A program made the position numbers and the translations under genes. Positions 37,238 to 41,598 of a stretch of 46,216 nucleotides of DNA are shown piece after piece. Each line of letters opens with the position of its first letter. Position 1 is the stretch's first letter. The notes under the pieces are model-generated. The model saw only the letters and a list, made by a program, of their open reading frames with translations. It had not been told where the DNA came from and did not search any database. This DNA comes from Promethearchaeota archaeon. Its GTDB lineage: Archaea; Asgardarchaeota; Lokiarchaeia; Sigyniarchaeales; SOKP01. The stretch covers positions 1 through 46,216 of the forward strand of contig JAHLWH010000174.1 of the NCBI GenBank assembly GCA_019058015.1. Direction: 5' to 3'.

Positions 37238-39295
37238 GTGAAAATTAGCAATTCAAGGACTTTAAAAAATGAAGAGAATAATCTATTTAAATTCAATTTT
37301 CTTAAAAACGAGAAAATTGATCATAGAGAGTATCAAATAAATATTGCTAAGAAATGTTTTGGTAATAATTCCTTAGTTGTGATTCCAACTGGATTAGGGA
37401 AAACGATAATATCTATAATTGTTGCAGCTCATACTCTTGAGAATTCTCCACCACATTGTAAAGTGATAATTTTAGCACCAACACGTCCTTTGATTAACCA
37501 ACATCGTGAAAACTTCTTAAAATTCATGAATATTCCCAGTGAAAAATTCAGTATTTTAACTGGACAGATTGAACCAAATAAAAGAACATATGAATTTATG
37601 AATAATCAGGTCTTATTTTATACTCCTCAAACATTAAGGAATGACATCTTAAATAACAGATATTCTTTAATGAATGTTTGTTTAGTTATATTCGATGAGG
37701 CCCATAGAGCCCAAGGAGATTATGCTTATTGTCAAATTGCCGATGAATATATTGAGCATAATAATGATGGAATTATACTTGGTCTTACTGCCTCTCCTGG
37801 ATCAAATAAAGAAAAGATTTCTATTTTATGTAAGAATTTACACATTCCCTTAAACAACATTTATCTAAGAACACGTAAAGATAATGATGTAAAAGATTAC
37901 ATCCAGCCAATGAAAATTTGGAAAGTTGGTGTTGATATGACAGATTTAATGAGATTAGTTCATTCAGCTTTAAAAAATATGATTCAAGAAAGATTAAATT
38001 ATCTAAATTCTCTTGGATTTCTCGATTCTAATAAGGGACAATTGGAAAATATCTATAAGAAAGATTTAATAAGATTAAATAGAGAACTTTTAGAAATAAT
38101 TAATGGAGATAGAAGTAAAACAGGTGTTTATAAAGCATTATCGATTAATGCACAAATACTTAGGCTGTTTCATATGTTAAGCTTAGTTGAAAGTCAAGGA
38201 CTTGATTCATTATTATCTTATTTAAAATCTATGAAAAATCAATCTTCAAAAAAAAATGCCTCTAAAGCGTTAATTAGTTTAGCGAATGATTATGAAATCA
38301 ATAAAATCTTCAATGAACTTCAACAATATAATGAAATAGATGAACTACTATTAATCCATCCAAAATTTAATATTTGTAAACAAATAATCCTAAAGGAGCT
38401 GAAGGTAAATCCTGATACAAGAATTATAATATTTTCAAAACTAAGAGATTCAGTAGCAACTATCACTTCTAAATTAAAAAAAAATAGTTTAATAAGACCA
38501 AAAAGATTTGTGGGACAAGCAACTAAATCAAGTCAAGATAAAGGACTTTCTCAGAAAAAACAGATAGAAATTCTTAATGATTTTAAAGAAGGGAAATATA
38601 ATGTTTTAATTTCTACAAATGTCGCAGAAGAGGGGCTTGATATTGCAGAATGTGATCTTGTTATATTTTATGATGTTGTTGCTTCAGAAATTAGACTTAT
38701 ACAGCGTAAAGGGCGAACAGCTAGAATTCGTGAGGGTAAAGTAGTTATCCTTTATTGTAGAGGAACTTCAGATGAGATATATTTACATATTTCTTTAAAT
38801 AGACTTAAAAAAATGCATGAATTATTAAAAACCCCGAAAAAAATCCCTGAAATTATTAAACCAAAAAAAAAAAATGATAATTTAGATAAGTATCTTTCTC
38901 CTATTGTAAAATTAAGTAAAAATATTCCTTTATTTTTTGGAATTCGACAATTTCTGAGAAATTCCGGCATTATGTTTCAGATATCTTCCTGCCAATATCA
39001 CATTCATATTGGAAAAAAATTAGGGATTCATATTTTTCCAGCAAGAAAGATTACTAAATTGAACAGTGAAGGTCTTCTTAAAGACTGGATTCATGAATTT
39101 CAAAGCAAGTTCGATCTAGCTGTGATAATTGCAGAATTTCTTGATTTCGAATCGATGTTTGAAGAAGACCTAAATCTCGTAAGACATAAGATTTCTAGAA
39201 TTGGAGATGGTTATGAAATCCCAGTAATTTTTATCGGTAAACAAGAAGAACTTCAAAAGATTTTAAAAGGTTTTTTCGATAAGATTCTAAAATAA
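37238..39295 (+). CDS. hef: Hef/FANCM/Mph1-type superfamily 2 helicase, nuclease part degenerate
   Basis: The 685-residue protein has motif I PTGLGKT (50-56), motif Ia APTRPL, motif II DEAHRAQGDYAY (from 153), motif III LTASPG, and motif VI QRKGRTAR (489-496) near the end of the second RecA domain. A long helical insert (about 230-370) matches the thumb-like domain of Hef/FANCM. Archaeal Hef normally ends in an XPF-type nuclease with an ERK-x3-D site and a helix-hairpin-helix pair. Here the C-terminal 140 residues keep a possible nuclease-like core (FDLAVIIAEFLDF) but no ERK-x3-D and no hairpin. The enzyme likely remodels stalled forks and branched DNA without cutting. GTG 37238 is the start. 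Confidence 0.85.
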   Translation: MKISNSRTLKNEENNLFKFNFLKNEKIDHREYQINIAKKCFGNNSLVVIPTGLGKTIISIIVAAHTLENSPPHCKVIILAPTRPLINQHRENFLKFMNIPSEKFSILTGQIEPNKRTYEFMNNQVLFYTPQTLRNDILNNRYSLMNVCLVIFDEAHRAQGDYAYCQIADEYIEHNNDGIILGLTASPGSNKEKISILCKNLHIPLNNIYLRTRKDNDVKDYIQPMKIWKVGVDMTDLMRLVHSALKNMIQERLNYLNSLGFLDSNKGQLENIYKKDLIRLNRELLEIINGDRSKTGVYKALSINAQILRLFHMLSLVESQGLDSLLSYLKSMKNQSSKKNASKALISLANDYEINKIFNELQQYNEIDELLLIHPKFNICKQIILKELKVNPDTRIIIFSKLRDSVATITSKLKKNSLIRPKRFVGQATKSSQDKGLSQKKQIEILNDFKEGKYNVLISTNVAEEGLDIAECDLVIFYDVVASEIRLIQRKGRTARIREGKVVILYCRGTSDEIYLHISLNRLKKMHELLKTPKKIPEIIKPKKKNDNLDKYLSPIVKLSKNIPLFFGIRQFLRNSGIMFQISSCQYHIHIGKKLGIHIFPARKITKLNSEGLLKDWIHEFQSKFDLAVIIAEFLDFESMFEEDLNLVRHKISRIGDGYEIPVIFIGKQEELQKILKGFFDKILK

Positions 39296-39317
39296 AAATA
39301 AAAATTTGAGTCTAAAG

Positions 39318-40343
39318 ATGAAGAGACTAAATATTAATATCAATAGAATAATACAACTAAAAAAAAATGGAAAAACTAATGATGAAATTGCTCAAGAATT
39401 TAAATGCACTCTAACTTCAATTAGAAATTATCTCAAAAAATTTATGTTGGATTATAATAAATATAAATATTTCAGGAGATCTCGACAAGAGATCAATGAA
39501 ATGATAAAAATGAAAAAAAAAGGAAAATCAAACAAAGAGATTGCTCAAAAACTTGAACGTTCTATCCCAACAGTTGGGAGATATCTTCAAAAGTTTATAT
39601 CTGATTATAATAAATATACAAACAATAGAATTCTACAAAAAGAGATTACTAAAATGATTGTACTGTAAAGAGAAAGATTATCATACAAAAAAATTGGCAA
39701 AGAATTAAATTATGCTGAAAGCATGGTTGGAAAATATATTAAAAAATTCATGTCAGATTAGAAAGAGTTTCTTAATTGTAAATTTACGAAAAAAGAGATC
39801 GAAAAAATGATTGTTTTAAAACAAAAGGGAATGGCTAATTGGGAAATCGCTGAAAAAATGAAATGTGATAAGATTACAGTTGGAAGATATCTTAGTAAAT
39901 TTATGCCTGATAATAATTTTTTCCCTCATATTTTAAATGAAGAAGAATATTTACATAGAAAGAAGGTTAAAGAAAGAAAAATCAAGAAATATAAACAATC
40001 ACTAGAAAAAATTGAAAAATTGAGGGAATGTTTTAAAGATAGGGTAATTACAAGCCAAGAATTATGGATAATAAATTACCTTCTTCCAGCACAAAAAAAG
40101 CTTAAATAATTTTTAAATATTTCGGAAATTGCAGAAAATAAGGAAGAGATCCTAAAATGTTTAAAAATAATTACCCATATTTTGCTTAAAATTAACAAAA
40201 ATCGCTCATCTGATTTGATTTTGGGTAGTTCTATATATTTAAATCCATCTTTTAATTTAAAAAATGTCTTGGATCTCTTAAATATTTCAATTACTCCTAT
40301 TAATAAATTATTAAAGACAACTGGATTAAGAAAATTTCAATAG
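39318..40343 (+). pseudogene. Multi-HTH protein gene broken by three in-frame stops
   Basis: One reading frame runs from ATG 39318 to TAG 40341, interrupted by TAA 39666, TAG 39759 and TAA 40107. It encodes four helix-turn-helix repeats of about 45 residues (for example EINEMIKMKKKGKSNKEIAQ, then TVGRYLQKF, then SDYNKY). Repeat three is intact across its two stops: the first stands where repeat four has Lys (MIVLK), the second where other repeats have Tyr (DYNKY). Each is explained by a single base change. After the third stop the frame continues with a helical segment (RSSDLILGSSIYLNPSF) reminiscent of a TFB cyclin repeat. It was probably a DNA-binding protein, recently inactivated. Confidence 0.75.
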
Positions 40344-40831
40344 ATAAGAGATTTGAATAGAATTGGAATATGTTGTATTTTCATGTTCAAAAATTTAAGA
40401 AGTGTGGTTTGTTCTATCTTAATGGGAGCCAAATTTCTTCTGAATTTGTAAATTCGCATAATAAATTCAAAGAAATGGTTCTTCTTAAATGTTTTTTCTC
40501 TGCTCAACCTCTCTCCAGTGGAGATCGACCCTCATTCTGAAAGATCACTTAAAATCTTTTCTACATTAAGAAGTTAGGTTATAAATTCCGATCAATTCCA
40601 CCAGAAATCACTGGATTTCGTACCCAATCCGATTTTTTTCTTTATAAAGTTTTAATTTAAAAGTCTCTCAAAAAAAAAATTTAAAACTATGGGTTGAATA
40701 AAAAGATGAACGGAAAAAAATCAATGGATGATATAGCAATATGGAAGGTAATCGTTGATATTACTCAAATACCAGCCAAGCCACAAAAGGAAGATTCTTG
40801 GTTGTTTTAAAACCTAATTATAATTATCCTA
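40342..40831 (+). other. Decayed coding region between the HTH pseudogene and the Hef-tail fragment
   Basis: No intact gene is present. Short open stretches with protein-like composition occur in different frames, for example one reading FYLNGSQISSEFVNSHNKF (about 40415-40475), one reading GYKFRSIPPEITGFRTQSDF (about 40580-40640), and one from ATG 40706 reading MDDIAIWKVIVDITQIPAKP. The last is in frame with the Hef-tail fragment that follows, separated by a single TAA. The base composition is less AT-rich than true intergenic DNA here, so this is most likely eroding gene sequence. Confidence 0.5.
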
Positions 40832-41050
40832 TTGGATTATTGTTATATTGAAAAATTTAAGAAAAACTTTAAAATCATTGTAATTATAGCCCAATTTCTT
40901 GATTTTACCGAGATTTTTAAAAATGAGAAAAAGTATGTCAAAAGAAACTTATTAAAAATTTCTCAAAAATATGAAATTCAAATTATTCCCATTGATAATA
41001 AAGATGAATTATTTCTATTATTGAGAGGATTTTTCAAAAAAAGAATTTAG
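40832..41050 (+). pseudogene. Detached copy of the Hef C-terminus
   Basis: The 72-codon frame aligns with the last residues of the helicase at 37238. FKIIVIIAQFLDFTEIF matches FDLAVIIAEFLDFESMF, then YEIQIIPIDNKDELFLLLRGFF matches YEIPVIFIGKQEELQKILKGFF at equal spacing. No helicase motifs precede it. It is the tail of a duplicated or second Hef-like gene whose front has decayed or been replaced. The nominal start is a TTG without a ribosome binding site. Confidence 0.6.
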
Positions 41051-41052
41051 AA

Positions 41053-41598
41053 ATGATTGAAAAAAATACCCAAATAAGAAAGTATATTGTATTTCCTTGT
41101 AAGAAATGCTGTCAATATACTTACGCTAGAGTGAATCAAAAAGGAAAAAAATGCCCACGTTGTGGAAAAAATCACAAAATTTCAGAAATCTCTGGAGAAA
41201 TTGTCAATAATTTGAAAGAAGCAAATTTATTAGTAAGAAAAAAACAAGATGGATTTGCTATAAAAAATGGATTTAAAAATCTTGATTTATCATCTTTAAC
41301 ATCTGGTTTTACCATACCAGGATCTGATAAATCTACATTCAATTTCCAGCAATTCAGAAAAATGAATAAAGAAAATAATAAAAATTTATACAATAAATTT
41401 ATATTTGGGCTGAAACAATTAAAATCCAATTTTTCTACTTTTTCTACAATTCCAGAAAATATTTTTACTTTATTTTTTATAAATAATGGTTTTAAGAGTT
41501 CAGAAATAAAACAATTAATAAAATTGGCCTTAAGAGACAAAAAAATCGATCAATATTTAAAAAATAATAATGTTAAATATTACCAAATAATTGTTTAA
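41053..41598 (+). CDS. Zinc-ribbon protein (DUF1922-like N-terminus)
   Basis: In this 181-residue protein the N-terminal zinc ribbon has C16-x2-C19 and C34-x2-C37, the second in KKCPRCGK. The connecting YTYARVNQKGK resembles the DUF1922 family, in which a rubredoxin-like ribbon is followed by a helical EA...VR segment (here LKEANLLVRKKQDG). Residues 80-181 are Asn/Phe-rich with a helical C-terminus (FKSSEIKQLIKLALRDKKI) of winged-helix character. A role in DNA or RNA binding is inferred. It begins two bases after the Hef-tail fragment ends, so it was probably transcribed with the helicase. Confidence 0.65.
   Translation: MIEKNTQIRKYIVFPCKKCCQYTYARVNQKGKKCPRCGKNHKISEISGEIVNNLKEANLLVRKKQDGFAIKNGFKNLDLSSLTSGFTIPGSDKSTFNFQQFRKMNKENNKNLYNKFIFGLKQLKSNFSTFSTIPENIFTLFFINNGFKSSEIKQLIKLALRDKKIDQYLKNNNVKYYQIIV

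What the first reader, a model, noticed from the sequence alone, without database searches (positions are those of the whole stretch)
39318..40343. Recently broken multi-HTH gene: stops fall exactly where repeats have Lys and Tyr
Because the protein is a series of repeats, the lost residues can be read from its own sister repeats: TAA 39666 replaces Lys and TAG 39759 replaces Tyr, each one base away. A third stop at 40107 is followed by in-frame coding sequence to 40341. All four segments share one frame with no indels, so decay is very young, or stops are read through.
Basis: seen in the sequence. Interest (0 to 1): 0.6.

Follow-up and report, generated by a model that had tools for sequence, protein, structure and literature searches.

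The report
Dead gene inside a gene-tail swap
In a Lokiarchaeon genome, a stretch of foreign DNA has landed in the end of a DNA helicase gene, replaced that end with another version, and brought along a dead DNA-binding gene; the dead gene is ordinary, but the tail swap around it is informative.

Summary
One frame, 39318-40340, carries three stops (TAA 39666, TAG 39759, TAA 40107) where shuffles of the same DNA average 31. It encodes four 51-codon helix-turn-helix repeats in exact 153-nt register plus a C-terminal part. A profile built without repeat 3 still finds it, with both stops inside, at E=8e-9. It is a decayed gene, not four genes and not readable recoding.

The gene lies in a ~1.9-kb foreign segment (about 38954-40846) inserted into the 3' end of an SF2 helicase gene. 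In 27 of 29 other genomes inspected, the helicase is followed at once by a DUF1922 gene, and none has the HTH gene there. The resident helicase tail (97% identical to the closest relative) is stranded at 40847-41047. The helicase instead ends in a divergent tail (39% identical) that keeps it open. The remainder of the insert is a transposase fragment and a copied gene start.

Most likely: homology-anchored illegitimate integration of DNA from an unsampled relative, as in bacterial Rhs/T6SS "C-terminal displacement". The stranded tail shows no amino-acid change unique to this lineage, so the insertion is recent; the HTH gene was probably already decaying on arrival.

The parts
37238..38953 (+). 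SF2 helicase gene, resident part (DEAD/Helicase_C; Hef/FANCM-like is a recalled name)
   Evidence: Pfam DEAD, Helicase_C, helical bundle; 532/574 aa identical to same-genus G002; 95% nt
38912..38953 (+). last stretch identical to G002 and G004 (42 nt); presumed homologous anchor / crossover
   Evidence: Alignment breaks right after 38953
38954..39295 (+). foreign replacement tail of the helicase, in frame; gene ends at 39295
   Evidence: 43/110 aa identical to G002 tail although N-part is 93%; outlier by 5-6 sd among 435 pairs
39318..40343 (+). decayed multi-HTH gene (four 51-codon repeats 39333-39944 plus C-terminal part); stops at 39666, 39759, 40107
39306..39668 (+). surviving 120-codon ORF with two intact HTH repeats
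   Evidence: HTH_23, HTH_40
40389..40649 (-). remnant of an insertion sequence: upstream end and first codons of an IS66-like transposase gene
   Evidence: 79-81% nt to G002 copies; next to a 469-aa ORF in L072 with weak IS66 hits below cut-off
40635..40839 (+). 93% copy of the start of a gene upstream of a HerA/VirB4-like ATPase at G000:C7; cut short, one stop inside
40847..41050 (+). stranded original 3' end of the helicase gene
   Evidence: 66/68 aa identical to G002; 194/201 nt G002, 197/201 G004
41053..41598 (+). DUF1922-like gene, ancestral neighbour of the helicase

Best explanation
The feature is a pseudogene carried in a foreign insert. A DNA fragment from an unsampled Lokiarchaeon relative paired with the resident helicase gene over a short identical stretch (about 38912-38953) and recombined there. 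Its other end was joined without homology inside the resident helicase tail (about 40847), with loss of roughly 130 nt. The helicase therefore stays open with the donor's tail, the resident tail is stranded downstream, and the donor's next gene (a four-repeat HTH protein, already decaying or dead), a transposase remnant and a gene fragment came along as passengers. Shown: the decayed HTH frame, the replaced tail, the stranded resident tail, the broken helicase-DUF1922 pair, the debris. Inferred: the one-step route (homology-facilitated illegitimate recombination), the donor, and the order of decay and insertion.
For: Helicase and DUF1922 are adjacent in 27 of 29 other genomes inspected (25 of 26 in L013-L038, plus G001 and G004); no HTH gene hit in any of the 31 loci. 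Homology breaks at 38953/38954 and resumes at 40847. N-part 93%, tail 39%, stranded tail 97% aa identity to G002. The three pairs of the window's helicase with its genus are the lowest residuals of 435. No direct repeat joins the two borders, as expected for a non-homologous right end. The right junction shares no repeat, and G000 holds no second copy of this helicase (its next match is a 44% paralogue), which speaks against a chimeric contig. The stranded tail has 3 lineage-specific changes in 201 nt, all at third codon positions. The same layout (new C-terminus, old C-terminus stranded downstream) and mechanism were proposed for Vibrio T6SS loci (PMC5361080, passages).
Against: No donor sequence was found, so the insert's integrity in the donor is unknown. 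The insert is a mosaic (IS end, C7-like fragment) and could have been built in several steps. The C7-like piece differs from G000:C7 at 13 of 190 aligned bases plus 2 gaps, more than the stranded tail suggests for the interval, so parts may have different ages. Total absence of amino-acid change in the stranded tail would also fit a tail still in use. No reads were available.
Confidence: 0.72

Rival explanations
1. Remnant of an integrative element whose recombinase targets the 3' end of the helicase gene and which carried a substitute tail; most of the element, its integrase and one attachment core were later deleted.
For: The gene end is restored in frame, as many 3'-end integrators do (recalled). 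Passenger and mobile debris lie inside.
Against: No integrase in the insert; no direct repeat linking the borders; about 130 nt of the resident tail is missing; no relatives in phage, plasmid or viral collections.
Confidence: 0.13
2. Assembly chimera: segments of two related strains were joined, and no genome has this arrangement.
For: The insert contains a repeated IS end where assemblers can misjoin; the left break follows a 42-nt identical stretch; the stranded tail looks constrained.
Against: The right junction has no shared repeat; the bin has no other copy of this helicase; both flanks belong to the same lineage.
Confidence: 0.08
3. The stops are read through or recoded and a full-length multi-HTH protein is made.
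For: Single frame, no indels. Pyl recoding of UAG exists in one Asgard class (PMC9723677, abstract and passages).
Against: TAA twice and TAG once; these codons end other genes here; PylS over cut-off in 0 of 4 genomes; that paper confines Pyl recoding to Sifarchaeia; no conserved stop-bearing homologue found.
Confidence: 0.03
4. The pieces are genuine separate small genes; in particular the 120-codon two-HTH ORF is a working regulator.
For: Two intact HTH repeats over Pfam cut-offs; a one-repeat 57-codon ORF exists in G001.
Against: Repeat 3 is split by stops; no orthologue of 120 or 100 codons found; the G001 ORF itself looks like a fragment.
Confidence: 0.1

Closest known systems
C-terminal displacement in Rhs, CdiA and Vibrio T6SS effector loci (PMC5361080 passages; PMC3150448 passages)
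   Same: Conserved N-part, exchanged C-terminus, new downstream gene, old C-terminus stranded downstream; mobile-element debris between; homology-facilitated illegitimate recombination proposed (PMC5361080).
   Different: Here the host gene is an archaeal helicase, not a toxin; the passenger is not an immunity gene and is dead; one event, no array; no sign of selection for exchange.
Homology-facilitated illegitimate recombination in transformable bacteria (Acinetobacter, Pseudomonas stutzeri, S. pneumoniae; original papers not read, seen only as citations)
   Same: One homologous border, one non-homologous border, loss of resident DNA at the latter (this last point recalled).
   Different: Archaeon; inferred from a scar, not observed.
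Multi-HTH proteins such as phage D5-like regulators (phrog_323) and HTH arrays attached to homing endonucleases
   Same: Tandem homeodomain-like HTH repeats; family genomes hold HTH arrays with GIY-YIG (L006) or LAGLIDADG (L008) domains.
   Different: No nuclease domain found in this frame; C-terminal part has no convincing relative.

Membership tests
Pseudogene | Reading frame of a recognisable protein interrupted by stops or frameshifts | tested here: met
   Three stops; profile match across two of them
Pseudogene | Intact homologue elsewhere | tested here: inconclusive
   None found in 97-196 relatives, genome contigs, viral contigs, phages, plasmids; interruption judged from sister repeats instead
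C-terminal displacement by homology-facilitated illegitimate recombination | Resident N-part with foreign C-terminus in frame | tested here: met
C-terminal displacement by homology-facilitated illegitimate recombination | Old C-terminus stranded downstream | tested here: met
   66/68 aa to G002
C-terminal displacement by homology-facilitated illegitimate recombination | Homology at one border, none at the other | tested here: inconclusive
   Left border follows an identical stretch; no border repeat; donor unknown
Integrase-type insertion in a gene 3' end | Integrase gene and direct repeat of the core at both borders | tested here: not met
Recoded (Pyl) gene | PylS present and only UAG in frame | tested here: not met
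   0 of 4 over cut-off; two of three stops are TAA
Homing endonuclease | Nuclease domain | tested here: not met
   No nuclease family among Pfam matches shown

The most novel reading that the evidence does not exclude
Lokiarchaea take up DNA by homology-anchored illegitimate recombination, and this can exchange the C-terminal domain of a core repair-type helicase, yielding a working chimeric enzyme with the old tail kept as a stranded spare.
Probability: 0.3. Interest if true: 0.5.

Novelty: new member of a known kind. Interest (0 to 1): 0.33.

Why it matters
The dead gene alone is ordinary. Its setting is a clean, recent snapshot of foreign DNA entering an Asgard archaeon through one homologous and one non-homologous border, with a resident gene's C-terminus exchanged and the old one still readable. 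It shows that a gene of this group can be a chimera of two lineages, which affects gene trees of Asgard repair proteins, and gives a layout that can be searched for.

Tried and rejected
Searches for an intact multi-HTH relative or donor: genome contigs, viral contigs, phages and plasmids, relatives. Weak C-terminal hits (best E=1.8e-4) mostly contain stops and were dismissed as chance. Structure of the read-through protein: mean pLDDT 48, not used; only the repeat-4 area reached 63-83, and no fold search was run on it. Codon-usage scoring discriminates too poorly here. The GC3 of the foreign tail printed was taken in the wrong frame; one search gives 0.25 against 0.16 for the N-part. Recurrent tail exchange was tested among 30 helicase proteins (435 pairs) and not seen outside the window. 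In one search four minus-strand loci gave junk short proteins and were not counted; one search repeats the comparison with both strands read. Literature searches found no report of this locus; most hits were seen as listings only.

Full report
What is there. The frame from ATG 39318 to TAG 40341 contains stops at 39666, 39759 and 40107. Its first 620 nt or so are four repeats of 51 codons, R1 39333-39485, R2 39486-39638, R3 39639-39791, R4 39792-39944, in exact 153-nt register. R1 and R2 pass Pfam cut-offs for several HTH families. R3 contains the first two stops. A profile from R1, R2, R4 and a fragment of G001 finds R3 at E=8.4e-9 with one TAA and one TAG inside. R3 matches its sisters at 84-92 of 153 nt; the best of 2000 shuffles reaches 70. 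Three stops in 341 codons compare with a shuffled mean of 31 and minimum of 17. The stretch after the third stop is open for 77 codons (0.06% of shuffles), so it too was probably coding.

Organism. The window's genome, G000, is unnamed, with 283 contigs, 94% complete and 3.4% contaminated.

The setting. In G001 and G004 (same genus) the helicase gene is followed within a few bases by the DUF1922-like gene. The pair is found in 25 of 26 further family loci (L013-L038); the exception, L031, has another, convergent gene there. In G002 the contig ends at the helicase. That is 27 of 29 other genomes. An HTH match at E<=1e-4 was found in none of the 31 loci searched; two of these are longer copies of two others. 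In the window, about 1.75 kb lies between the helicase stop and DUF1922.

Tail exchange. DNA identity to G002 and G004 is about 95% up to 38953 and breaks there. In protein, the helicase's first 574 residues match G002 at 532 of 574, the last 110 at only 43 of 110. The 68 residues encoded at 40844-41047, just before DUF1922, match G002's own tail at 66 of 68. So the resident tail has been displaced, and a homologous but divergent tail, in frame, took its place. Among 435 pairs of 30 helicases the three pairs of the window's protein with its genus are the lowest outliers (-4.9 to -5.9 sd); no other pair is below -2.2. The new tail is nearer to the genus (40-42%) than to other genera (24-35%, partial matches included), so the donor is probably an unsampled sister lineage (inference).

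The rest of the insert. 40389-40649 resembles the upstream end and first codons of a transposase gene on the minus strand, present in several partial copies in G000 and G002; the intact 469-aa ORF in L072 has weak IS66 hits below cut-off. 40635-40839 is a 93% copy of the start of a gene that precedes a HerA/VirB4-like ATPase on another contig (the ATPase label rests on weak Pfam hits, and recall). The right border at 40840-40847 has no repeat linking it to the left border.

Timing. Helicase N-part dS between the window and G002 is 0.142. The stranded tail has 3 changes unique to the window lineage in 201 nt, all at third codon positions. No amino-acid change in about 161 nonsynonymous sites bounds neutral divergence since stranding at about 0.019 (95%, Poisson, my arithmetic). 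At 0.02 substitutions per site about 1.1 stops are expected in the HTH frame; three or more then has a chance near 0.1 (my arithmetic). So the gene was probably decaying before it arrived, though later decay is not excluded. Zero indels agrees with a short history but is weak evidence.

Mechanism. The anatomy (homologous left border inside a conserved gene, non-homologous right border, loss of about 130 nt of resident DNA) is that of homology-facilitated illegitimate recombination. PMC5361080 (passages read) proposes it for Vibrio T6SS loci and cites it for Rhs, with stranded 3' ends of the displaced gene. PMC3150448 (passages) describes orphan cdiA C-termini, some with IS elements. I found no paper describing this in an Asgard archaeon in searches, which are narrow.

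Read-through. PMC9723677 (abstract and passages) reports Pyl recoding in Asgard archaea only in Sifarchaeia. PylS passed its cut-off in 0 of 4 genus genomes; one of 14 controls did. TAA and TAG close other genes in the window. Read-through is unlikely.

Verdict. A real pseudogene, correctly spotted, but a passenger. The more interesting feature is the exchanged helicase tail with the old one left behind.

Noticed in passing
L041:6994-7167 (G001): A 57-codon ORF with one repeat of the same HTH family, matching R4 and a little beyond; looks like a further remnant of this gene family in the genus.
   Followed up: partly
L006:475-1743 (G045): A 422-aa protein with an N-terminal GIY-YIG nuclease domain followed by several HTH repeats, probably a homing-type endonuclease.
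   Followed up: partly
L008:589-2649 (G065): A 686-aa protein with HTH repeats and a LAGLIDADG-like domain.
   Followed up: partly
L069:3309-5381 (G000:C7): Most relatives encode one open frame of about 670-1030 aa where G000 has a 112-aa and a 542-aa ORF, so this ATPase-like gene may be split too.
   Followed up: no
window:40341-40390: The HTH frame stays open beyond its final TAG up to the transposase remnant, so the true end of the gene may have been cut off.
   Followed up: no
window:38860-38880: The linker before the helicase tail is about 24 nt shorter than in G002 and G004 and runs through a poly-A stretch.
   Followed up: no
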